Virus record (IMG/VR): IMGVR_UViG_3300045243_000033
Coordinates: 1 to 48,295 of that record
DNA: 48,295 nt
Direction: 5' to 3' (one strand)
Origin: a virus
Part shown: piece by piece, positions 1 through 48,295 of the stretch
Position numbering within the stretch: the stretch's first letter is position 1
Layout of the letters: each line of letters opens with the position of its first letter
Notes under the pieces: model-generated
The model's input: the letters and a program-made list of their open reading frames with translations, nothing else
Databases searched by the model: none
What the model was told of the DNA's origin: nothing
Translations under genes and position numbers: made by a program

Positions 1-482
1 CGCGCTGGCGCGGGGCGACGACGCCTTCGATAGCGCCAACGACCTCGTCACGAACGGAGTCCGGCCAGCTCGATGCAAGAGGCAAGAGGCGTTCGCGCAT
101 CCGGCGAACCGCGAGGCTGTCCTCGAGCCCCGACAGATCGGCTCCAACGGGGACCGCCTCTGCGAAGCGACGAGGCCAGGTCAGGGCCTCGACCTCGGGC
201 AACCCCTCGAAGATCGCGTCCTCGAGGAGCGCCAGCCACTCCGGCAGTCCGAGCCGCTCCGGATACAGCGAGTGCGGCGCCTCGAGCGGCGTGTGGTCGT
301 CGGGGTCTTTCAGCGAGCACCCGACGGCGCAGCCCTTCCACTTGCCGTTCGCCTGCTCCCAGTAGACGCCCTTGATGATCGTGTCGAGCCGCTCGTGCTC
401 GGCGATCCGGGCGAGGAGCGTCGCCTTGATCTCGGGGTCGCCGTGGTAGGCGACCATCGTCGCCTCGTTCACCTGGGTCATG
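1..482 (-). CDS. Phage protein of unknown function, N-terminal part (runs off left edge)
   Basis: About 160 codons are visible from an ATG at 480-482, preceded by a good ribosome binding site (GAAAGGAA, about 4 bases upstream). The reading frame stays open to the window edge. A GCAVGC motif near residue 52 and a downstream stretch with LGLPEWLALLEDAIFEGLP recall a phage/plasmid protein family of unknown role whose members often end in long Ala/Asp/Ser-rich repeats. The frame begins to turn Arg-rich (VVAPRQR) at position 1. I infer that its C-terminus is the repeat gene entering at 48041-48295. No function can be assigned. Confidence 0.75.
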
Positions 483-28987: not shown

Positions 28988-29440
28988 TTACTCCTGAGGC
29001 GAGGACGCGGCGTGCTCGCGCAGAGCCTTGAGGAGATCGTCGGAGGTCACGTTGCCGTCCTTGCCGGTGCCCGTCACCTGCAGGCCGAGCTCGTTGACAC
29101 GCCCCTGGCGCTCCTTCTTCGTCAGCGAGTCGAGGTCATCATCGACCGCCGGCTTGCCGGACTCGACCCGATCCACCGCAGCGTCGTGCTCCTCGGCCTG
29201 GCCGGTGATGGCGTCGGCCTCGGCGTTGAGTCGCTCTGCCTCCGCCCGCAGGGCCTCGGCACGCTTGCGCTGCGACTCGCCGGGGAGCTCGAAAGCCTTC
29301 TGCAGGCGCTCGTACTCGCTGTCGGAGAGCTCCACCAGGTCGCCCTTGCGGAAGCGCTCGATCACCTGGTCGTCGCCCTTGCCGGTGATCCGCGTGTAGC
29401 GGGCGCCGGTCAGGACGTAGGTCTTCGTGGAGACGCTCAT
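28988..29440 (-). CDS. Head protein with coiled coil, unknown
   Basis: 150 residues from ATG 29440 (ATGA overlap with the capsid gene). N-terminal strands (TYVLTGARYTRITGKGDDQV) resemble the small beta-barrel of gpFII-like domains. A long charged helix follows (SQRKRAEALRAEAERLNAEA), and the C-terminus (KKERQGRVNELGLQVTGTGK) looks like an LEM/HeH-like mini-domain. Probably a minor head or head-tail component. Confidence 0.6.
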   Translation of the reverse strand: MSVSTKTYVLTGARYTRITGKGDDQVIERFRKGDLVELSDSEYERLQKAFELPGESQRKRAEALRAEAERLNAEADAITGQAEEHDAAVDRVESGKPAVDDDLDSLTKKERQGRVNELGLQVTGTGKDGNVTSDDLLKALREHAASSPQE

Positions 29441-30339
29441 GGCGTCACCGTTCCAGTGATCTGAGCGATCGCGAGCGGCTCATCGATTGCAACGGCCGAC
29501 TGGCGCAGGGTGTCCGAGCGCCATGCCTCGTTCTCGCGCTTCCAGAAGTAGAGCTCCGAAACCGACAGCGGCCGCTCATCGACGATCGCGCCGATGGTCT
29601 TCGCCTCGAGGATCAGGGGCGACGCGTCGGGGACGCTGTAGGAGACGTAGACGTCGAGGCCGGAAACCTGACGCGGAAGCTTGCCGAGCAGCTCGGGCCG
29701 GTCTGAGGCGATGTTCCCCTGGAAGACCCGGTTCACCTCGTCGGCGCCCTCGAGGATCGTCGCCAGTGTCGGGCTGATCGCCATCGCGTTGGGGTTGAAG
29801 CCCCGCTTCTCGTCCACGATCACCTGCTTGGCAGCGGCGATGTCGGCGCGGATCTTGGTACCCGAGGGCGCGTCCCAGGCCGCAGTGGCCGGGATCACGT
29901 GGCTCGGATCCACACCGGCGAGGACGGCTGTCATGAAGGTGCCGTCGATCGCGCGGATGACCGTGTTCTTGACCAGCTGGATCTGCTTGTTGACGCGATC
30001 CATCTGGTTGCGCCGGCGCATCTCCTCGGAGATGACCACGCTCAAGCCGCGCTTGCGTGTCGGCTCGAACTTCGGCACGCCGACATCGGTCATCGCGACC
30101 GGGATCTCGCCGAATTCGGCGACGATCTCTGGGTCGTTCTCCGCGAACAGCGGCGGCGACTCGAAGTACTGGACGACCCCGCCCGGTGCATCCCCGCCGC
30201 CGCGCAGCAGCTGGTCGGCGATGAACTTCTGATCGAGGATGTCGAGGATCCGCTCCTGGATCAGGGTGGGCTGGCGGAGCAGCGTGTTGACGGTGATCCG
30301 GGGGCCGGAGTCGGCGGATGCCCAGCGTACGGGAGGCAT
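29437..30339 (-). CDS. Major capsid protein
   Basis: 300 residues from ATG 30339. The predicted order, a long N-terminal helix, EFGEIPVAMTDVGVPKFEPT, KRGLSVVISEEMRRRNQMDR, NPNAMAISPTLATILEGADE and VSGLDVYVSYSVPDASPLIL, fits HK97-fold capsid proteins. It sits after a decoration protein and protease/scaffold gene, as expected. Length is at the short side of the family. Confidence 0.85.
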   Translation of the reverse strand: MPPVRWASADSGPRITVNTLLRQPTLIQERILDILDQKFIADQLLRGGGDAPGGVVQYFESPPLFAENDPEIVAEFGEIPVAMTDVGVPKFEPTRKRGLSVVISEEMRRRNQMDRVNKQIQLVKNTVIRAIDGTFMTAVLAGVDPSHVIPATAAWDAPSGTKIRADIAAAKQVIVDEKRGFNPNAMAISPTLATILEGADEVNRVFQGNIASDRPELLGKLPRQVSGLDVYVSYSVPDASPLILEAKTIGAIVDERPLSVSELYFWKRENEAWRSDTLRQSAVAIDEPLAIAQITGTVTP

Positions 30340-30785
30340 CAGTAGATCACCGCCAGTCCGACCGCACCGAGCGAGACCGCGTTGAGCGCCTCACCGATGA
30401 TCGCCCGGGTGTTGGTGATGCTGGTGCCCGCGTGGGCCAAGTCTGAGATGTCCACCGCCGGCAGCGGGGTGACCTGGCCGCTCGCGGCCGCGATCAGCTT
30501 GTCTCCCGGGTTCGCTGCGGCGGCGAAGGTGACTGCGATGACGCAGAAGCGGGAGACTGGCAGGCCGAGCGCGTCGCCGACCTTGACCTGCTCGGGCGAG
30601 AGGATGGTGGCGAGAGCGTCCTTGCGGGCGACGCCGCAGACCTTCAGCGAGGCCGCGCCGGCGGGCTGCACCAACCGGGTGCCGTTGATCCGCTCGACCA
30701 ACTGGCCGCCGGTGATCGCCGCGTTGGGCGTGTAAGAGATGGTGAGGGCTGCACCCTCGCCGAACTGTGGGCTGACGGCACTCAC
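30339..30785 (-). CDS. Capsid decoration-like protein (DUF2190 type)
   Basis: 148 residues from ATG 30785. NAAITGGQLVERINGTRLVQ and SLKVCGVARKDALATIL, then VSRFCVIAVTFAAAANPGDK, RAIIGEALNAVSLGAVGLAV make up the small beta-fold that trims capsid surfaces in many siphophages. It overlaps the capsid start by one base. Confidence 0.75.
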   Translation of the reverse strand: MSAVSPQFGEGAALTISYTPNAAITGGQLVERINGTRLVQPAGAASLKVCGVARKDALATILSPEQVKVGDALGLPVSRFCVIAVTFAAAANPGDKLIAAASGQVTPLPAVDISDLAHAGTSITNTRAIIGEALNAVSLGAVGLAVIY

Positions 30786-31891
30786 TTGGCCGTCTTCTCC
30801 TTCTCGCGGGCGCGCCGCGACCCCTGCGGGTCGTCGCGCTCCCAGGAGTCCAGGAGCTCCTCGTTGCCGTTCGAGGCTTCGCCGTCGGAGCGACCCCGCT
30901 CAGAGAGGTCGATCATGCCCTCGCACTGCTCCAGGATCTTCCCGACGGTGTCATGGGCATCGATCTTGGTGCCGTTCGAGAGCTCGATCTGCGCCTTCTC
31001 GCCCTTCAGGACGGGCTCGGCGAGATCGACGATGGCCGGAGGCACACCGGCCTCCAGAAGCTTGTCGCGCTTGGCCTCGTAGCGCTCCTTCGCGAGCTCG
31101 GCGCGCGCCGCGGCCGCCTGCTCGCGGGCAGTCTTCGCGTCGGACTTCGCGAGCTCGATGGCCTCGCGGTCTTCCTTGGAGAGCGTCGCCGGGACCGGCT
31201 CCTCCTTCACCTTGCCGGGCTCGGTCTCCTTGCCCTCCTCCTCGAGGATGCGGGCCAGAGCCTGCTCCATCTCCTCGTCCGAGATGTCGGCGTCCTTGAG
31301 GGCGGCGGCCGCTTCCTTGCCGCCCTTCTTCGCCAGAGCCTGGAAGGTGGCCTTCTCCGTGTCGCTGAGTCCGCTCACGGGATCGGAGAATGATTCCCCT
31401 GACAGATCGATCACTCCCGCCGACTTAGCGGCGTCGGAGAGTGCGACCTTCTCCCAGGGCTTCATTCCCTTGATCACCGGGTTGAGCGTTCCGGCGACGT
31501 GCTCGATGAACGGTGCCTCGGGATCGGTGCAATCGATGCGGGCCGAGACACCCAGCTTCGGGTTGTCGTCGACCAGCTTCGCCCCGTCCTCGGAGAGCTC
31601 GAGGGTGATGTAGAGCCCATCGCCAGCCAGATCCATCGCCTTGACCTCGCCCCGGTACTTCTCCGGGTCATCGACGTGCTTGTTTTCCGAGTCGACGAGG
31701 ACGTAGGGCACCTGGTCGAGCTTGCCGGCGGCGAAGTTCGCCACCAGCTTCGACAGGTACTCCTGGTTGAAGTCGAGCCTCTCGCCCTCGTGCTCGACGG
31801 TGCTCAGCGGGAGGAGCTGCTTGCGGAACAGGTGCTTGCCGACCTGCTGCGCCTTGCCCTCGCTGAACGGGAGATGCAGTGCCTTAGACAC
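30782..31891 (-). CDS. Prohead protease fused to scaffold
   Basis: 369 residues from GTG 31891; the open frame further upstream lacks protein-like sequence. Residues 1-150 resemble Mu I/Z-type prohead protease: LPLSTVEHEGERLDFNQEYL, VPYVLVDSENKHVDDPEKYR, GEVKAMDL, LELSEDGAKLVDDNPKLGVS. Residues 190-330 are a charged coiled-coil scaffold (SKEDREAIELAKSDAKTARE), ending in a basic peptide. The protein likely guides capsid assembly then cleaves it. Confidence 0.8.
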   Translation of the reverse strand: MSKALHLPFSEGKAQQVGKHLFRKQLLPLSTVEHEGERLDFNQEYLSKLVANFAAGKLDQVPYVLVDSENKHVDDPEKYRGEVKAMDLAGDGLYITLELSEDGAKLVDDNPKLGVSARIDCTDPEAPFIEHVAGTLNPVIKGMKPWEKVALSDAAKSAGVIDLSGESFSDPVSGLSDTEKATFQALAKKGGKEAAAALKDADISDEEMEQALARILEEEGKETEPGKVKEEPVPATLSKEDREAIELAKSDAKTAREQAAAARAELAKERYEAKRDKLLEAGVPPAIVDLAEPVLKGEKAQIELSNGTKIDAHDTVGKILEQCEGMIDLSERGRSDGEASNGNEELLDSWERDDPQGSRRAREKEKTAK

Positions 31892-32240
31892 GATCGGGAA
31901 GGTAGGAACGCGTTCGGATCGCCCGCTTCCGCCAACCGACGGACTCGGTGCCGTCGCCCTGATTGGGCTCCGGCTCTGGCGCTTACTTAGGGCAACCAGA
32001 GCGCAATGCCCCCTTTCGTCGATCCCAGCTCTTGGCTCCATCTCACCCACGGCACTGCCTCTGTTTCGCGCAGCGCAAGACCGTTGCCCCTCTAACGGGC
32101 TAGCGACCGACTCGGGATCCGTAGCGTCAGGCCAGCGGGAGTCGGCGGGCGGGGTGGCCGCTCACAGAAACGACCGCCACGGCAAGTAGAGTGGAGCGGC
32201 GTTTCTTCATCCACGCAGGAGTCTGATCTCGGCTCCCGAC
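31892..32240 (-). other. Non-coding interval before the structural genes, candidate late promoter
   Basis: Between the terminator at 32241-32267 and the protease GTG at 31891 no convincing gene is seen. A 27-codon ORF (32127-32210, MKKRRSTLLAVAVVSV...) looks like an isolated signal-like peptide and is doubtful. A promoter driving the head and tail genes would be expected here, since a terminator stands just upstream, but no clear -35/-10 pair was found. Confidence 0.4.
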
Positions 32241-32267
32241 GGAAAAACTGCCCCGCTCCGGCGGGGC
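32241..32267 (-). terminator. Intrinsic terminator
   Basis: On the minus strand GCCCCGC (32267-32261), loop CGGA and GCGGGGC (32256-32250) form a perfect 7-bp GC stem, followed by AGTTTTTCC (32249-32241). This is a standard Rho-independent terminator and the clearest one in the window. It separates the tRNA/HNH/fibre segment from the head and tail genes. Confidence 0.85.
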
Positions 32268-32328: not shown

Positions 32329-32475
32329 CTAGGCGGTCCTCGTTCGCGAGGAGGACGATCGACTTCGGCGGCCGATCACTCCCGAGAAGAGCGGAGAGCC
32401 GTCGGGAGCAATGCCTGTCTGGGTCAGACCGGCCCCACGACACCAGTCCTCACACTGCTGGCGAGTGATCTTCAT
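32329..32475 (-). CDS. Small hypothetical protein after the tRNA
   Basis: 48 residues from ATG 32475, nine bases after the tRNA. The first half (KITRQQCEDWCRGAGLTQTG) is protein-like; the second half is Ser/Arg-rich and may be shadow. Could be a small real gene with an unclear end. Confidence 0.35.
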   Translation of the reverse strand: MKITRQQCEDWCRGAGLTQTGIAPDGSPLFSGVIGRRSRSSSSRTRTA

Positions 32476-32483
32476 AGGCGGAA

Positions 32484-32558
32484 TAGCGCGACCGGGATTC
32501 GAACCCGGGACCTTCGGGTTATGAGCCCGACGAGCTGGCCTGGCTGCTCCACCGCGCA
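32484..32558 (-). tRNA. tRNA-Met(CAU), initiator type
   Basis: A complete 75-base cloverleaf. 5' acceptor TGCGCGG pairs with 3' TCGCGCT except at position 1:72 (T:T mismatch). The D stem is GAGC/GCTC with A11:U24; A14, G18-G19 and A21 are present. The anticodon loop CTCATAA has anticodon CAU on stem TCGGG/CCCGA with three consecutive G:C pairs next to the loop. The T stem is CCGGG/CCCGG with loop TTCGAAT. The 1:72 mismatch, A11:U24 pair and GGG/CCC stem are hallmarks of initiator tRNA. No CCA is encoded. Confidence 0.95.
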
Positions 32559-32598: not shown

Positions 32599-32850
32599 CT
32601 ACGCGGCATCGTCGGCAACGGCGCGTGTCGGCGCTGCCTCAGGCCCGGTCGTCTCAGCCTCGGGCTCAGGCGCGGGCGTCAGCTCGAGCTTGCGCGTGTT
32701 GCGATCCACCTTGACACGGTGGCCCTTCTCGCAGCGCGCAGTCAGCACCCGGTCCTCGTCCAGGTCGCCGACCACCCGGACGATCTTCGCCTTGCACTTC
32801 TCGTGCGGGCACGGCGTGCCGAACGGGTCCTTGAGCTTCGCCTTGGCCAT
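32599..32850 (-). CDS. Small zinc-binding-like protein
   Basis: 83 residues from ATG 32850. Residues 13-45 have TPCPHEKCKAKIVRVVGD and LTARCEKGHRVKVDRN, a Cys/His set typical of a zinc ribbon. The C-terminal half is disordered (PAPEPEAETTGPEAAPTRAV). Possibly a transcription-related or head-associated accessory protein. Confidence 0.65.
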   Translation of the reverse strand: MAKAKLKDPFGTPCPHEKCKAKIVRVVGDLDEDRVLTARCEKGHRVKVDRNTRKLELTPAPEPEAETTGPEAAPTRAVADDAA

Positions 32851-34131: not shown

Positions 34132-35772
34132 CTACAAGAGCCGCTTGAGCTTCACGTGCGAGTTCGTCAGCACCTTGATGTTCTCAGCCGTCGCCGTGTT
34201 CTGCGCCCATTGGAGGGTCACCGTGCCGCCTGTTGAGCCGTTCGTGATCCAGGCCGCGAAGCCCGTCACCGAGATGCCGTTGTCCAGACCGAAGTTCATG
34301 GAGGTCGTGGTGACGAGCGTTGGCGTTGTCGCCGCGCCGACCGAGCCGATGTTCGAGAACCGGGTGATCTGGTAGGTGCAGCCGGACGGCACGGAGAGCT
34401 GGACCTTTATGTCGGCGTTCAACGACACGCCCTGGGTCAGCAGAAAAAACTCCGCGAAGTGGACCTCGTTCGCAGCCATGGCCCAGAACAGGTGGTCATC
34501 AAGCTGGAACGTGGCCGAGTTGTTGACCGTCTCGTCGGCGGTCTTGACGACCCGGCCGCTACTCCAATCCCACTCGGCCCAACCGCCCGCGCCGTCGCCG
34601 ACGTACACGAAGCCGGTGTTCGTCTCGAACCAAAGCTGGCCGGTCGAGGAGGCCGTGACGAGCCGGAGGGCGCGTGTCCCGGTAGTGGCGACCGGGCCAG
34701 CCGCCCCCGTGGCGCCCGTCGAGCCGGTTGCTCCCGTCGATCCCGTCGCTCCCGTCGCTCCGGTGGCACCAGTCGGACCCTGCGGTCCGATGAGCGACGT
34801 GGACGAACCCCAGGAGCCGCTCGTCTTTGGACCGTAGATCGAGTTGTTGTCGGTGCGGATGTAGAAGTCGCCATCGACGCCGAGGCCCGCCGAGGGCGCG
34901 CCGGAGCCCGATCGCACCGTCTTTCCGTCCGCTCCCGCGGCTCCTGTCGCCCCGGTGGATCCGGTTGCACCCGTGGAGCCCGTCGCGCCCGTTGCTCCGG
35001 TAGGACCGATGAGGCTGGTGGGCGATCCCCATGACCCGGATGCCTTCGGCCCGTAGACCGCGGTCGTGTCCGTGCGGTAGTAGAGATCGCCGTCCACGCC
35101 GAGGCCGGAGCTCGGCGCTCCTGAGCCGCTGCGCACCGTCTTGCCGTCAGCGCCAGCGGCCCCAGTGGCTCCCGTGGCCCCAGCTGCACCCGTCGCACCG
35201 GTTGGCCCGGTCGCGCCCGTTGCTCCGGGGTCGCCGGTGTCTCCCTTGTCACCTTTCGGCCCCTGAGCGCCAGTCGCGCCTGCTGCGCCCGTCGCCCCTG
35301 TTGCGCCAGCCGGTCCAGTCGCCCCGGTGGCTCCAGGAGCCCCGTCGGCTCCGTCCGCGCCATCAGCGCCGGGATCTCCCTGATCGCCCTTGTCGCCCTT
35401 CGCTCCCGTGGCGCCGGTAGCTCCAGCGGGCCCGGTGGCGCCGGTCGCCCCTGGAGCGCCGTCGGCTCCGTCCACTCCATCGTCGCCGGGGTCGCCCTTC
35501 GGCCCGGTTGCCCCCGTCGCGCCGGTCGCCCCTGTGGGCCCGGCGTCGCCCGGATCTCCCGTGTCACCCTTCGGGCCGGGATCTCCCGGCGGACCCGTCG
35601 CGCCGACGGCGCCATCCGCTCCGTCCGCTCCATCGGCCCCGTCAGCGCCAGCCGGCCCCTCTGGACCCACGGGACCGGGCGGACCAACGTCGACGCGCTC
35701 GGTGACGTGCTGGGCTTCCTCGGTGCGTTCGACGACCTCGACCCGATCTACGACCTCGATCGTCTCGGTCAT
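34132..35772 (-). CDS. Collagen-like fibre protein
   Basis: 546 residues from ATG 35772. A short acidic head ([20 protein letters not shown]) leads to about 200 residues of Gly-X-Y triplets. Two copies of a 50-residue module beginning [12 protein letters not shown] and ending SGSWGSxTSLIGP then follow, separated by more triplets. The C-terminal 140 residues ([20 protein letters not shown] to [20 protein letters not shown]) match the fibre tip of 15364-16368. Collagen-like triplets make trimeric rods, so this is a likely head or tail fibre. Confidence 0.85.
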
Positions 35773-36295: not shown

Positions 36296-36901
36296 CTACG
36301 CCCCTACGAGGACACCCGCTGGCTCCCTCACGCCCACCCGATGAGGCGCACCTGGCTTGCATCTGCAGAAGGGATGGACGGTGCCGGGGTAGGCAGGACG
36401 GCCCTCGACTATGGGCGGATCCAGCACAGAGAAATTGTGGCCGTGCATCGCCCTGCAGCCCACGGTCGGATGGTCGTCGCGCCGGGAGTACCAGCCGAGC
36501 GTCAGCCCGTGGATCGCGGCCTGCTCGTCCACCTTCGCCGCAGCCTCTCGGCGCCCGCGCTCGGCGCCCAGGTGCTGGGAGAGGTAGCGGCGCTCGGCGG
36601 TAATCGAGGAGGGGTCGCTGGCGAGTCGCTTGGCGGCGTTCACCACGTACGCGGCGTGGCGAGGGAAGGCGGTGCGAGCAACCCATCCGGACGCGCTCGC
36701 CGGCATTTGGCCGAGGTCTGGCTCGATGTTCGGCGCCAGGAGCTCGAGCACGCTGCCGACGGCGGCGACCGGGATCCCGAGCACCTCGGCGGCGATCGGC
36801 GTCAGCTCGGGCTCGGGCATCCCCGAGAGGAGGAGCACGACCAACGCGGCGAGGGTGGCCTCGTCAGCCGGTGACTGCTGCTGAGCTTGGCTGGCTTCCA
36901 T
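36296..36901 (-). CDS. Mu F-like minor head protein
   Basis: 201 residues from ATG 36901, overlapping the portal end by 38 bases. The C-terminal part has the characteristic GCRAMHGHNFSVLDPP...PGTVHPFCRCKPG motif of phage Mu F-like head morphogenesis proteins. The N-terminal half is helical. Such proteins associate with the portal inside the capsid. The family's N-terminal region appears shortened. Confidence 0.75.
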   Translation of the reverse strand: MEASQAQQQSPADEATLAALVVLLLSGMPEPELTPIAAEVLGIPVAAVGSVLELLAPNIEPDLGQMPASASGWVARTAFPRHAAYVVNAAKRLASDPSSITAERRYLSQHLGAERGRREAAAKVDEQAAIHGLTLGWYSRRDDHPTVGCRAMHGHNFSVLDPPIVEGRPAYPGTVHPFCRCKPGAPHRVGVREPAGVLVGA

Positions 36902-38315
36902 TCGCCTGTTGTGCGAGCTGGCCCTGGCGCACGAGCTGCGTCGCCGCATCGACGCCGGCCTGCACCTTCGCCACCGGCGTATCGGGCGCTGAGTCGACGC
37001 GATCCTCGATTGCCTTGCGCACCTGGTCAACGTCGAGGGCGAGGTAGCCGGCGACCTTCTCCACCAGGAGGTCGATGAACTCCTGGGGCACAGCGACCGG
37101 CTGCTGGGCGCCGGCAAGCGCTTGCAGAAGGCTGAACGCCTGCTCCATCGCATCCGCCGCCGGCGGCTTGAACTTGAAGCTGGGAAAGGAGGCGCCGACA
37201 CCGAAGTTCCAGAAGACGAGATCGGCGACCGCGAATGAGCTGATCGTCGCCGCCATCTCCGTCAGCACGCCACCACGGCTGAGCTTGAAGAAGTCGATCG
37301 CGGATTCCGAGAGCGCGTAGGAGCCTTTGCCGGACCCAGCGGCCGCGGTGAGCTCCGTGAAGCCGGCCAGGACCGAGCCCACCATCTCCGCGCTCAGGTA
37401 GTCCATCGCCTGCTTGAAGACGTCGGCGCCGCGACCCGTGGACTCGAACGGCGTCACCTTCTCGTCGGGCCCGATGCCGAGCACCGAGCCGCCCTTCATC
37501 GTCGCCACCCGCTTGGCCATCTCGTCCTGCTCGTCGGGGTCTGGACTGGCGGCCTGAGCGATTGCTTTCGGGATCGTCTGGCCCTCGAGGAACGAGTACC
37601 AGAGGAAGCGAATCTTCTGCTTGGACTCGAAGATCGAGTAGGCGGTCCGCAGCGAGCTGATGCCGTAGAGCGGGTCCCGGTGCTGGCCGTGGATGTAGAC
37701 GAGTGCCTTCTGGGCTGGAATGTCCTCGCTCTCGAACCCGTCGCCCTTGCGGAAGCGCTGCCGGAAGCCCTTGAAGCTGTAGTCGTCTCGATCGCGGAGC
37801 AAGGAGCACGTGCGCGCCGGCCGGAACGCGATCTTCTTGAACGTCACCCGGCCGTCGCGGACGCGGAAGACCTTCTCGAAGTAGGCGCGTCGCAGGGTGA
37901 TCGCCGACGTCATCTGCGCGATCACCTGGTCGATGGGCGTGCTCATGCCATCGGCGTTGGCCGGCCGCTCGAGCTCGTTGCGGACGAACTCGGCCTCGCC
38001 CGAGTCGCCGTCACCGGGCTCGATCACCCACTCCGCGCTCATCAGTGGCAGCGTCAGCACCTGCTCCAGCGTCTTCGCCTTGCCGTCGTGGTCGAGCATG
38101 TACTCGAAGTCGTCCTCGCGCAGGTCCCGGGTCTCGAAGACCTTGCCGTCGTCGAAGGTGACGAACATGCGCTCGCCGGAGTAAGAGGAGCCGATCTCGC
38201 CCTCGGGCGGACCCGTCGTGATCTTCACCCGAGCCCCGTCGGCGGCGAGCTCCACGCGGCCTCTCTTGCCGTTGTGCGAGCCGTCGCGGTAGAGGATCAC
38301 TCCGGAGTCAGGCAT
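36864..38315 (-). CDS. Portal protein (Mu gp29/DUF935-like)
   Basis: 483 residues from ATG 38315. Motifs: LPLMSAEWVIEPGDGDSGEA, FEKVFRVRDGRVTFKKIAFR, YIHGQHRDPLYGISSLRTAY, EGQTIPKAIAQAASPDPDEQ and the long helix AVADLVFWNFGVG... These are typical of DUF935/Mu portal proteins, forming the dodecameric ring for packaging and tail docking. The extended Gln/Ala-rich C-terminus may contact the F-like protein. Confidence 0.85.
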   Translation of the reverse strand: MPDSGVILYRDGSHNGKRGRVELAADGARVKITTGPPEGEIGSSYSGERMFVTFDDGKVFETRDLREDDFEYMLDHDGKAKTLEQVLTLPLMSAEWVIEPGDGDSGEAEFVRNELERPANADGMSTPIDQVIAQMTSAITLRRAYFEKVFRVRDGRVTFKKIAFRPARTCSLLRDRDDYSFKGFRQRFRKGDGFESEDIPAQKALVYIHGQHRDPLYGISSLRTAYSIFESKQKIRFLWYSFLEGQTIPKAIAQAASPDPDEQDEMAKRVATMKGGSVLGIGPDEKVTPFESTGRGADVFKQAMDYLSAEMVGSVLAGFTELTAAAGSGKGSYALSESAIDFFKLSRGGVLTEMAATISSFAVADLVFWNFGVGASFPSFKFKPPAADAMEQAFSLLQALAGAQQPVAVPQEFIDLLVEKVAGYLALDVDQVRKAIEDRVDSAPDTPVAKVQAGVDAATQLVRQGQLAQQANGSQPSSAAVTG

Positions 38316-39058: not shown

Positions 39059-39474
39059 GCTGCCTTCCTTTCCAAGTTGTCCAGCATCGCCTCCAGGGTC
39101 CAGTCCACCGTCAGCGAGGGCCCGGCTTGCTCGTCGACCCGCGGATCGTCCTCCCAGCGGCTTTCGTCATAGACGACCCGCTGGCCCGTGAGTGCGTGCT
39201 CGGCCACCATGTCGCAGCAGCTCGCGAGCGACGGGCGGAACGGGTACTCGACGATGAAGGTGGCGCGCATCGAGCGCTGCAGGTCCATGGTCCCGTGCTG
39301 GCCTGCGCGCACGAGCTTGCCGAAGCTCCGGCCGCCCTGCACAAGCGCCTCGCCGGTCTCGCGGAAGTAGAAGCACTCGCGGCCGCGCCCCTCGGCCTCG
39401 ATGTGCGTGACCATCCGCTCGGCGACCTCCTGGGCCTTGGTGTCGGCGACGGCGGTAGTAATTATTACTTCCAC
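39055..39474 (-). CDS. Hypothetical protein, late unit
   Basis: 139 residues from GTG 39474, starting inside the terminase C-terminus. VADTKAQEVAERMVTHIEAE, FRETGEALVQGGRSFGKLVR, MRATFIVEYPFRPSLASCCD. No clear family, although the combination of basic helix and strand core suggests nucleic acid contact. Coupled to the next gene by ATGA. Confidence 0.6.
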   Translation of the reverse strand: MEVIITTAVADTKAQEVAERMVTHIEAEGRGRECFYFRETGEALVQGGRSFGKLVRAGQHGTMDLQRSMRATFIVEYPFRPSLASCCDMVAEHALTGQRVVYDESRWEDDPRVDEQAGPSLTVDWTLEAMLDNLERKAA

Positions 39475-40946
39475 GCCACGGCGCCGCGCGCCTTCTTCTT
39501 CTCCGTGTAGGGCGCGGCCTTGCGTCCGTTCTCTGACATCTGCGGCTTGCGGCTGTAGCGCTTCAGGTGGGTGATCGCCCACACGAGAGCGTCGAGGCGG
39601 TTCGGCGACGTCTCACCGGGGTCACCGGTCCACTCGCACATCTCGTCCTCGAGCTCGGGCAGGTCGTTGATGTGGTGGATGACGGGGTTGGAGAGCTCAG
39701 GGGTCTCGTCGCTGTAGCCCTGCTCATAGAGCATCGCCACCGGCTCGGCCCGGGTCTTCTTGTGCTCGGTGGCGTAGACGCGCATGTAGGGGACGCGGAC
39801 CCCGAGCTCCTTCATCGCCTGCTCTAAAAGCCCGATCAGGGCCTCGCCGCCGTGGTTCATCTCGATCACGATCACGGCGTTCTCCTCGTCGGCCAGGATC
39901 ACCGCCGCCGTCAGCCACTTGAGCGGCGTAGTCCGCATGGCCTCGGAGTCGACGACGTAAAGCTGATGGTCGACGCCGAGGCCGGCGAGGCACCAAGCCT
40001 GGTCATCCGATCCCTCCTTGCCGTCGGAGGGGTCGAGGGCGAGCACCTTGCGGCGGTAGCCCTTCAGCGGCGAGCGCTTGACCCGGCCCTGCTCGATCCA
40101 GTCGCGCTGCCAAAGCGCTCCCTCGACCTCATCGAGAAGCTCCCCGCGGAGCTCCTGGCGGCCAAGCTCGGTGCCGACGTAGACCTCAACCTCTTCCTTG
40201 AAGGTGTCGGAGAGGTTGTCCCAGTTGTCCTCGGTCAAGAGGCGCCGGCAGATAACCCGGTCGTTGGCGAGGAGCTCCTTGATCAGCTGGCGCGCCGGCA
40301 GGCTCCGCTTCGGCGTGCCAGTGGCGATGCGCCGGGCGTGTCCCTTGCGCAACGCGAACCCGATCGACTCCCGCCACGCCGTCTTCCACTTCTTCCACAG
40401 CCCGATCTCATCGCACCAGACGCCGCGCAGGTTGAGCCCCTGGATCCGGTAGGCCCCGTCGTCGCCGCCGTCGATCTGGATGAAGGTGCTGTCGTGGAGG
40501 TAGAGCTCGCCGATCGAGCGGTTCCACTTGGCGACGGTCGGGCTGATCTTGGCCTCGACCTCGGCGGCGGTGGTGCCGAGCGCGGCCAGGAGCCCCGACT
40601 CGCCCTCGATGCACTTGTCTCGGGCGTCTCCGAAGGTGGGAGCGACGATCGCCCACTCCCCCGGGCCCTCGGTATCGCGCAGTGGATCGCGCTCTATCTC
40701 CTGGGTGAAGATGTGAGCGCCGGCCCAGGTCTTCCCGGAGCCGCGGCCGCCGCCCAGGAACAGTGTCGAAGGAGCGCCGGGCTCGTCCTCGTCCCACTCA
40801 CGAGGCGGTAGCTGGTCGGGTCGGGCTCGCTCGCGCCAGGAACCGTAGACACGTTCTCTGAGGCGACGGAGTAGCTGGCGCTTGGCCGCGACGGGCCAGG
40901 AGCGCCACTCGTCCGTGTTAGGCCGCTGCGCGACTGCGGCTTCCAA
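39465..40946 (-). CDS. Terminase large subunit
   Basis: 493 residues; TTG 40946 overlaps the small-subunit end. Walker A GGGRGSGKT at residues 65-73, Walker B GVWCDEIG near 180, a coupling segment (ATGTPKRSLPARQLIKELL), and the nuclease entry VLALDPSDGKEGSDDQAW with its final NRLDALVWAITHL. It pumps and cuts phage DNA into the prohead. All hallmark motifs present. Confidence 0.95.
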   Translation of the reverse strand: MEAAVAQRPNTDEWRSWPVAAKRQLLRRLRERVYGSWRERARPDQLPPREWDEDEPGAPSTLFLGGGRGSGKTWAGAHIFTQEIERDPLRDTEGPGEWAIVAPTFGDARDKCIEGESGLLAALGTTAAEVEAKISPTVAKWNRSIGELYLHDSTFIQIDGGDDGAYRIQGLNLRGVWCDEIGLWKKWKTAWRESIGFALRKGHARRIATGTPKRSLPARQLIKELLANDRVICRRLLTEDNWDNLSDTFKEEVEVYVGTELGRQELRGELLDEVEGALWQRDWIEQGRVKRSPLKGYRRKVLALDPSDGKEGSDDQAWCLAGLGVDHQLYVVDSEAMRTTPLKWLTAAVILADEENAVIVIEMNHGGEALIGLLEQAMKELGVRVPYMRVYATEHKKTRAEPVAMLYEQGYSDETPELSNPVIHHINDLPELEDEMCEWTGDPGETSPNRLDALVWAITHLKRYSRKPQMSENGRKAAPYTEKKKARGAVAWK

Positions 40947-43989: not shown

Positions 43990-44219
43990 CGAACGCTCGT
44001 CGAACATCGGAGCGGCGAAGGGAGTCGATCGAGCGGCAAGCCGCGGCCAGAATCTCCCTGCTCTGACTCGTTACCGTTCGCTGCCGCTTGCCGCCCCTTG
44101 CCGTAGGGACCCGCTTCACACGCGAGAGGTCGCTGGTTCGAAACCAGCCGTGCCCATGCCTGAGAAGTGATCCGAGAGGTGTCACCCGGCCCCACCTCCG
44201 AACGCTGGTCGAACATCGG
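43990..44219. repeat. Pair of 21-base direct repeats flanking attP
   Basis: The 21-base element at 43990-44010 recurs at 44199-44219 with a single mismatch at its ninth position. The copies lie on either side of the tRNA-like attP core, the second within the 3' end of the integrase gene. Each also contains two CGAAC units. Spacing and placement fit integrase arm-binding sites, but this is inference. Confidence 0.6.
44111..44156 (+). other. attP core: 3' half of a tRNA-Val(CAC) gene
   Basis: The plus-strand sequence forms anticodon loop TTCACAC (44115-44121, anticodon CAC), stem GCGAG, variable loop AGGTC, T stem GCTGG/CCAGC with loop TTCGAAA, 3' acceptor CGTGCCC and discriminator A (44156). 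The 5' half is absent. This is the classic identity block left in attP when a phage inserts in a tRNA gene and restores its 3' end. Integrase ends 26 bases away. Confidence 0.85.
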
Positions 44220-45306
44220 CGCCGGAAAACACCTCAGCGCGCGCCTTCGTGATCAGCTCGTCCAGCCCCAGCTTCGTCCCTCGGAGCTCCTCGATGAGGT
44301 GCTGATAGATGCGCTCCGAGGTGTCGGCGCGATGGCCCATCTGGTTCTCGATCTCGATTCGGGGCGTGTTGACGGCGGCCAGCAGCGAGGTACATGTGTG
44401 GCGCAGATCGCGCGGGGTGAGGTCCGGCTCACCGATCACCTTCGCCGCCTTCGACAGCCACCGCCGGCGCCAGTTGTTTCGGTCGGTCTTCGACCACGGG
44501 TTGCCATTCGGCTTCGGGAAGATCAGGCCCTCGGGGCGGCCGCGCGCCATCCGCCACTCGGCGAGGTCGGCGACCACGGCCTCCGGCAGGTCTATCCAGC
44601 GGTGGCCGGTCTTCGGGTCGAGGATGAGCTCGCCGTCCACGTTCTTGTGCTCGATGAAATAGCGGGGGCCCGAGAGGTTGCGCCAGCGCATCGCGAGTGC
44701 CTCCTCCGGCCGCGGTCCCGCGTAGGCCATCACCGAGACCAGCACGGCGTCGCCGAGGCGCTTGCGTTCGAGGAACCAGGCCCGGATGCGCTCTACCTGC
44801 AGCGGACTGAGCGCCGTGCCCTCGACGTGGCGGTGCTTGATCCGCACCAGCGAGCGAGCGGGGTTGCCCGGGAGGAGGCCCTGGCGCACCGCGTCATCGA
44901 GGATCTGGCCGAGCACCTGGGTGGCGCGCTGGGCCATGTACGCGGTGCCGCCCTCGATCGCCTGCTGCTGCCAGGCGTCGAGCCGCTGCGGCGTCAGGTC
45001 GATCATCGAGAGGTGGCCGATGTAGGGGTCGATGTGCTTCTCCAGCAGGCCAGCGACGAACAGCTGGGTGTTGCGGGCGAGCTCGCCGCGGTCGATCCGG
45101 CGCTCCAGCCACACCTCGGCGAAGTCGCCGAGCGTCGGGACATCGCGGCGGAGCAGCACCGGGCGGCCGAGACCGACCTCTCGCTCTACCTCGCGCTTGA
45201 AGTCGGTGGCGTCGCCCTTGCGGGTGAAGCTCTTGGAGCGCTGACGCTGCCCCTCGCGCCACTTCACCTCGTACTTACCGCTTGGGCTGCGGTGGACGCT
45301 AGCCAT
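44182..45306 (-). CDS. int: Tyrosine integrase
   Basis: 374 residues from ATG 45306. An N-terminal SAM-like arm-binding region (SGKYEVKWREGQRQRSKSF, QLFVAGLLEKHIDPYIGHLS) and the catalytic domain: box I AYAGPRPEEALAMRW with the first Arg, LTPRDLRHTCTSLLAA with the HxxR-like pair (R-H), and MGHRADTSERIYQHLIEELR with the nucleophile Tyr. Integrates phage DNA at attP/attB. It adjoins attP and follows the excisionase-like gene. Confidence 0.9.
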   Translation of the reverse strand: MASVHRSPSGKYEVKWREGQRQRSKSFTRKGDATDFKREVEREVGLGRPVLLRRDVPTLGDFAEVWLERRIDRGELARNTQLFVAGLLEKHIDPYIGHLSMIDLTPQRLDAWQQQAIEGGTAYMAQRATQVLGQILDDAVRQGLLPGNPARSLVRIKHRHVEGTALSPLQVERIRAWFLERKRLGDAVLVSVMAYAGPRPEEALAMRWRNLSGPRYFIEHKNVDGELILDPKTGHRWIDLPEAVVADLAEWRMARGRPEGLIFPKPNGNPWSKTDRNNWRRRWLSKAAKVIGEPDLTPRDLRHTCTSLLAAVNTPRIEIENQMGHRADTSERIYQHLIEELRGTKLGLDELITKARAEVFSGADVRPAFGGGAG

Positions 45307-48044: not shown

Positions 48045-48295
48045 GCCGCTTCGGGAACGGGCAGGGCACGTAGGGCATCAAGGAGCGCCGCCGACTCCGC
48101 CGACCACGCCGACTCCGCCGCCGACCGCGCCGACCGCGCCGACCACGCCGCCGACCACGCCGACTCCGCCGCCGACCGCGCCGCCGACCGCGCCGACTCC
48201 GCCGCCGACCACGCCGACCACGCCGCCGACCACGCCGACTCCGCCGCCGACCGCGCCGCCGACCCCGCCGCCGACTCCGCCGCCGACCGCGCCGA
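48041..48295 (-). CDS. C-terminal part of low-complexity repeat protein (continues off right edge)
   Basis: 84 codons to the edge, stop at 48041-48043. The protein is a run of short Ser-Ala units with one variable residue (SA[A]-E/W/R/H), for example SAAESAWSAAWSARSA, ending ALLDALRALPVPEAA. On the DNA level these are 9- and 12-base tandem units. This composition is typical of the C-termini of the same phage protein family as the gene at the left edge, so I read both as one gene broken by the linear ends. Confidence 0.65.
   Translation of the reverse strand, partial: SARSAAESAAGSAARSAAESAWSAAWSAWSAAESARSAARSAAESAWSAAWSARSARSAAESAWSAESAALLDALRALPVPEAA

What the first reader, a model, noticed from the sequence alone, without database searches (positions are those of the whole stretch)
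32484..32558. Phage-encoded initiator-type tRNA-Met
The cloverleaf has all three classical initiator marks: mismatch at 1:72, A11:U24 in the D stem and three consecutive G:C pairs at the base of the anticodon stem. Phages often carry elongator tRNAs for rare codons, but an initiator tRNA is unusual and could support late translation starts or replace a cleaved host initiator during defence. Abundant GTG/TTG starts in this genome make it more interesting.
Basis: partly seen in the sequence, partly recalled or inferred. Interest (0 to 1): 0.78.

Follow-up and report, generated by a model that had tools for sequence, protein, structure and literature searches.

The report
Initiator tRNA in phage head genes
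A temperate phage of soil actinobacteria (class Thermoleophilia) carries its own copy of the tRNA that starts protein synthesis, placed among its capsid genes. Phage initiator tRNAs are already known, but several other phages of the same bacterial class keep one near the same late genes, which suggests a job in making virus particles.

Summary
A complete tRNA(CAU) lies at 32484-32558 on the minus strand, with U1:U72 unpaired, A11:U24 and G29-31:C39-41. Models built from host tRNAs score it 86.8 bits as initiator against 62.6 and 48.3 bits for the two elongator/Ile2 types. The contig is a temperate siphovirus. Its attP is the 3' part of a Thermoleophilia tRNA-Val(CAC), 47 bp identical, so the host class is inferred and tRNA-dependent lysogeny at fMet is excluded. 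Hosts generally carry one initiator gene with C1:U72. The phage copy differs at 9-13 of 75 positions, keeps the structure by two compensatory pair changes, and has a host-identical anticodon arm. That argues against a nuclease-resistant decoy.

Phage initiator tRNAs are not new: cultured phages and at least 100 IMG/VR contigs carry one. What seems new is context. Four further Thermoleophilia-linked phages carry a lone initiator tRNA co-directional with packaging or capsid genes, two of them in the same capsid lineage. It is absent from 80 capsid relatives elsewhere and from 20 other terminase loci of this class, so it is not universal. In three of the five, an ATG without a Shine-Dalgarno sequence starts 4-6 nt after the tRNA.

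Most likely it is a working initiator tRNA supplied with late mRNA. Expression is untested.

The parts
32484..32558 (-). initiator-type tRNA-Met(CAU), CCA not encoded
32329..32475 (-). 48-codon ORF whose ATG starts 8 nt after the tRNA 3' end; coding status doubtful
   Evidence: not chosen by the gene caller
32250..32267 (-). terminator-like hairpin with T run downstream of the tRNA, before the protease gene
   Evidence: 1 found; 0.6 expected in shuffles
30782..31891 (-). head maturation protease-like gene (phrog_976, E 2.6e-4; ORF can start at 32050)
30339..30785 (-). small head gene (similar to the gene annotated scaffolding protein in actinophages)
29437..30339 (-). major capsid protein (phrog_1650, E 4e-77)
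32599..32850 (-). small gene ending 40 nt upstream of the tRNA, same strand, function unknown
36864..38300 (-). portal protein
39465..40946 (-). terminase large subunit
44112..44158 (+). attP core: 47 bp identical to the 3' part of Thermoleophilia tRNA-Val(CAC)
44182..45306 (-). tyrosine integrase, next to attP

Best explanation
It is a functional phage-encoded initiator tRNA (tRNA-fMet). It is transcribed together with the packaging/capsid genes, cut out of the late message, given CCA by the host enzyme, charged, formylated and used to start translation. Its gene copy number rises with phage DNA replication, so it adds initiator tRNA in a host that has a single initiator gene, just when capsid proteins are needed in bulk. 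Shown here: identity as initiator type, retained structure under divergence, phage location, co-direction with head genes, similar arrangement in related phages, and single-copy host gene. Inferred: transcription, processing, charging, formylation, and benefit in late infection.
For: Initiator model 86.8 bits vs 62.6 and 48.3. Relative to host initiators (CGCGGGG...CCCCGCUA; best 66/75 identical) the changes keep the fold: pairs 5:68 and 49:65 are swapped G:C to C:G on both sides, 7:66 becomes G:U, and 1:72 stays a mismatch (C:U to U:U). That is what selection on a working initiator would leave. No initiator with the TGCGNGG 5' end was found in 299 genomes of the host class, while 243 of 299 had the host-type arm, almost always once, so this is not a recent copy of the host gene. 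The tRNA is the only one in the contig and is co-directional with portal and capsid genes. Two prophage or phage contigs in Thermoleophilia genomes with the same capsid family (G430:C97, G235:C10) have an initiator-type tRNA between the same two head genes, upstream of protease, small head gene and capsid. Two further phages (G295:C28; IMG/VR L391/L392, the latter found only through the shared attP) have one about 2.2-2.5 kb upstream of terminase.
Against: No expression data. None of 80 capsid-related loci, mostly of other actinobacteria, carries one, nor do 20 Terminase_6N loci in this host class, so it is dispensable for many similar phages. No promoter was recognised upstream. The tRNA is followed by a terminator-like site before the capsid genes, so it may end a transcription unit rather than sit inside one.
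Confidence: 0.6

Rival explanations
1. Anti-defence replacement: the phage tRNA stands in for a host initiator destroyed by a tRNA-cutting toxin (VapC-type or other) during infection.
For: VapC toxins that cut initiator tRNA are known and phage tRNAs have been proposed to resist them through anticodon-loop changes (PMC10264068). Two related phage copies (G235, G295) have C33 instead of U33.
Against: In this window positions 26-48 are identical to the host initiator, so a nuclease reading the anticodon arm would cut it too. PMC10264068 reports that phages generally avoid encoding tRNA-fMet where the anticodon itself is the target.
Confidence: 0.14
2. tRNA-dependent lysogeny: the phage integrates into and breaks the host fMet gene and its own copy replaces it.
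For: Well described in actinophages (PMC10865867); this phage is temperate.
Against: The attP core beside the integrase is 47 bp identical to host tRNA-Val(CAC), long enough to rebuild that tRNA, and is the wrong isotype. The tRNA lies 11.6 kb from attP. No second fMet-like stretch of attP size is in the window.
Confidence: 0.02
3. RNA punctuation: processing of the tRNA out of the late transcript makes the 5' end of a nearly leaderless downstream message. The tRNA product may be secondary.
For: In G430, G235 and G295 the next ATG lies 4, 6 and 4 nt after the tRNA 3' end, without an upstream alternative start and without Shine-Dalgarno pairing. The G430 and G235 genes are homologous (25.5%, E 3e-8) and so probably real. 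Only 3 of 103 other viral initiator genes and 1 of 38 host ones have a start so placed.
Against: In the window itself the ORF is only 48 codons, 8 nt away, and of doubtful coding status. Any tRNA could punctuate, so the choice of an initiator is unexplained. The comparison is post hoc and small.
Confidence: 0.12
4. Passive cargo: a host tRNA picked up by chance and drifting.
For: Many related phages lack it.
Against: All initiator determinants are kept despite 9-13 differences, with two compensatory pair changes; similar placement in other phages.
Confidence: 0.12

Closest known systems
Phage-encoded tRNA-fMet of Caulobacter phage CcrBL9
   Same: Initiator-type CAU tRNA, U1:U72 mismatch, A11:U24
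   Different: Giant phage, CCA encoded, two of three G:C pairs (29:41 is U:A), sits with other tRNAs
Sinorhizobium phage phiLM21 and phiLM21-like prophages (PMC12429752)
   Same: About 50 kb temperate phage with a single tRNA(CAU) gene, beside the terminase genes; my parse finds G1:A72 and A11:U24, i.e. initiator-like
   Different: Different phage lineage and host; tRNA is antisense to the terminase operon; CCA encoded
Mycobacteriophage and Gordonia phage tRNA arrays with an initiator-like tRNA-Met (Roots515, Phendrix, Baudelaire)
   Same: Actinophage-borne tRNA-Met with A11:U24
   Different: One of many tRNAs in large arrays; not in the capsid genes
tRNA-dependent lysogeny phages (PMC10865867)
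   Same: Temperate actinophage with integrase, tRNA attB and a phage tRNA
   Different: Phage tRNA is not of the attB isotype (Met vs Val) and attP rebuilds the tRNA

Membership tests
bacterial initiator tRNA (tRNA-fMet) | no Watson-Crick pair at 1:72 | tested here: met
   U1:U72
bacterial initiator tRNA (tRNA-fMet) | A11:U24 in the D stem | tested here: met
bacterial initiator tRNA (tRNA-fMet) | three G:C pairs 29-31:39-41 | tested here: met
bacterial initiator tRNA (tRNA-fMet) | scores above elongator Met / Ile2 models | tested here: met
   86.8 vs 62.6 and 48.3 bits; model controls sort correctly
bacterial initiator tRNA (tRNA-fMet) | charged, formylated, used in the P site | not testable with these tools
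   needs tRNA sequencing or complementation
[quoted passage not shown]
   attP core is tRNA-Val(CAC)
tRNA-dependent lysogeny | short (~10 bp) core that does not rebuild the host tRNA | tested here: not met
   47 bp core from the anticodon stem to past the 3' end
nuclease-resistant phage tRNA | anticodon-loop changes relative to the host tRNA | tested here: not met
   positions 26-48 identical to host

The most novel reading that the evidence does not exclude
Some phages of Thermoleophilia keep an initiator tRNA as a fixed element of their late operon with two uses: supply of initiator tRNA for capsid synthesis, and a processing mark that frees a downstream, Shine-Dalgarno-less (near-leaderless) late message starting a few nucleotides after the tRNA.
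Probability: 0.12. Interest if true: 0.75.

Novelty: new variant of a known kind. Interest (0 to 1): 0.45.

Why it matters
Why phages carry tRNAs is a long-standing question, and codon compensation cannot explain an initiator, since every gene needs it once. A lone initiator kept beside capsid genes in several phages of one host class separates 'more initiation' from 'rare codons' and is directly testable by deletion, by complementation of an initiator-depleted laboratory strain, and by RNA end mapping.

Tried and rejected
Host copy or contamination: rejected; the tRNA sits 2.1 kb from the capsid gene in one phage contig and differs from all host initiators seen. Elongator Met or Ile2: rejected by model scores. 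Attachment-site relic: rejected; the true attP is elsewhere and of another isotype. Close relatives of capsid, terminase and portal in IMG/VR by single-protein search: none found; the alignment query gave 80 distant ones. Rule for neighbours of lone initiator tRNAs in viral contigs at large: none; integrase, Q-like antiterminator, recombination, terminase and head genes all occur in small numbers. Universal presence in Thermoleophilia phages: rejected. ATG directly after the tRNA as a general feature: rejected, 3 of 103. Model search of 399 genomes: the listing was filled by host initiators, so second copies were followed up in only 20 genomes. RNA folding z-score is uninformative. The exact anticodon-arm pattern found no second IMG/VR copy.

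Full report
1. Observation. ARAGORN and Rfam agree on a single tRNA in the window, 32484-32558 minus strand, anticodon CAU. Read by arms it has U1:U72, A11:U24, G29-31:C39-41, T-loop UUCGAAU, discriminator A73 and no encoded CCA. The window tRNA scores 86.8 bits as initiator, 62.6 and 48.3 as the others. Host controls sort into their own class in all three models.

2. The contig. It is an IMG/VR virus record of 48,295 bases, not known to be complete. Gene calls and PHROG/Pfam matches show a temperate siphovirus: terminase 39465-40946, portal 36864-38300, protease-like 30782-31891, capsid 29437-30339, tail genes, Erf-like protein, integrase 44182-45306, methyltransferase. The capsid is about 37% identical to Gordonia, Rhodococcus and Mycobacterium phages. 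The tRNA lies between a small gene (ends 32599) and a terminator-like hairpin at 32250-32267, all on the minus strand, in the head-gene block.

3. Host. Just past the integrase stop there is a 3' tRNA half (44112-44158, plus strand). A scan of 84,980 species genomes with a 39-base pattern from it gave 82 stretches, most of them titled Solirubrobacterales, Thermoleophilia or Actinomycetota (a few titles name other groups); 66 lie in a tRNA-Val(CAC), and the longest matches are 47 bp identical to the window. So the phage very probably integrates at tRNA-Val(CAC) of a thermoleophilian and rebuilds it. This removes tRNA-dependent lysogeny (PMC10865867), which needs a phage tRNA of the attB isotype and a short core.

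4. Phage versus host initiator. Host initiators read CGCGGGGUGGAGCAG...CCCCGCUA with C1:U72. The host-type arm occurs in 243 of 299 genomes of the class, almost always once; an initiator starting TGCGNGG occurs in none. The phage tRNA matches the best host at 66 of 75 positions. Changes are C1 to U1, a 10-nt D-loop, swaps of pairs 5:68 and 49:65 (both sides changed), and 7:66 to G:U. Positions 26-48 are unchanged. This is divergence under constraint, and it gives no sign of anticodon-nuclease escape of the kind proposed in PMC10264068.

5. Known phage initiators. Blastn finds 191 phage-collection records with a similar tRNA. Reading the determinants shows initiator-type genes in CcrBL9 (U1:U72), Phendrix, phiLM21, phiKX2 and Roots515. 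At least 120 IMG/VR stretches hold a strict initiator arm (the scan stopped at its limit): 110 copies parse with A11:U24 and GGG:CCC, 88 of them with a 1:72 mismatch, 27 of these U:U; in 81 of the 120 loci it is the only tRNA found. So the kind is known, and neighbours across these loci follow no rule.

6. Similar arrangement in phages of the same host class. (a) L391/L392, one phage found only because it shares the attP core, carries a lone initiator-type tRNA (C1:C72, A11:U24, two of three G:C pairs) about 2.2 kb upstream of terminase. (b) Among 399 Thermoleophilia genomes three hold a convincing capsid of the window's family: G430:C97 and G235:C10 each have an initiator-type tRNA upstream of, and co-directional with, protease, small head gene and capsid, between the same two head genes in both; G182 has none. 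G235:C10 also carries prfB and secA, so it is an integrated prophage in a bacterial contig. (c) G295:C28 has one 2.5 kb upstream of terminase. All score clearly best as initiators: 76.2-86.7 bits, 12 or more above the other models. Against generality: none of 80 IMG/VR capsid relatives has one, and none of 20 Terminase_6N loci of the class does within about 10 kb. The set is small, and G430 and G295 were found by searching for the tRNA.

7. A detail worth testing. In G430, G235 and G295 the next ATG begins 4, 6 and 4 nt after the tRNA 3' end, in a frame closed by a stop 38-54 nt upstream, with no alternative start and no Shine-Dalgarno pairing. The G430 and G235 genes are homologous. In the window an ATG lies 8 nt after the tRNA, but opens only 48 codons. 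Elsewhere this is rare: 3 of 103 viral and 1 of 38 host initiators, with 5% at random positions. RNA processing at the tRNA 3' end would leave a nearly leaderless message. This is inference, on few cases, seen after the fact.

8. Mechanism. Best supported: a working initiator tRNA made with late phage RNA in a host with one initiator gene. Expression, charging and benefit are inferred. Anti-defence use is possible but not favoured by the host-identical anticodon arm. Abundant GTG starts (41 ATG, 24 GTG, 3 TTG) are not an argument, since the same tRNA reads all of them.

9. Verdict. Observation confirmed, interpretation partly supported, known kind with an apparently new, partly conserved late-operon setting in one host class.

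Noticed in passing
L125, L154, L168, L179 (contigs PKYB01000083.1, PKXY01000001.1): Several copies of the tRNA-Val(CAC) 3' core on one Solirubrobacterales contig, some with a shared non-tRNA 5' side (TTTGCAGG...GGGCGTTTTCGCG), as if integrative elements had piled up in tandem at this site.
   Followed up: no
L435:16337-16409 and L430:6-77: Two phage initiator tRNAs of Thermoleophilia have C33 instead of the nearly universal U33 in the anticodon loop.
   Followed up: partly
L423:9917-9990 (G331): A thermoleophilian genome carries a second, divergent initiator-type tRNA (loop CUCAUUA); the two neighbouring proteins scanned are not phage-like.
   Followed up: partly
L426:2376-5009: 877-residue protein with a C-terminal pyridine-nucleotide oxidoreductase domain inside a phage head-gene cluster, between the initiator tRNA and the protease gene.
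   Followed up: no
window 48078-48293: Low-complexity GGVGAV-type repeat at the contig end, probably where assembly stopped.
   Followed up: no
window 34132-35772: Collagen-like tail-fibre-type gene lying between portal/minor head genes and the capsid gene, an unusual place for a tail gene.
   Followed up: no
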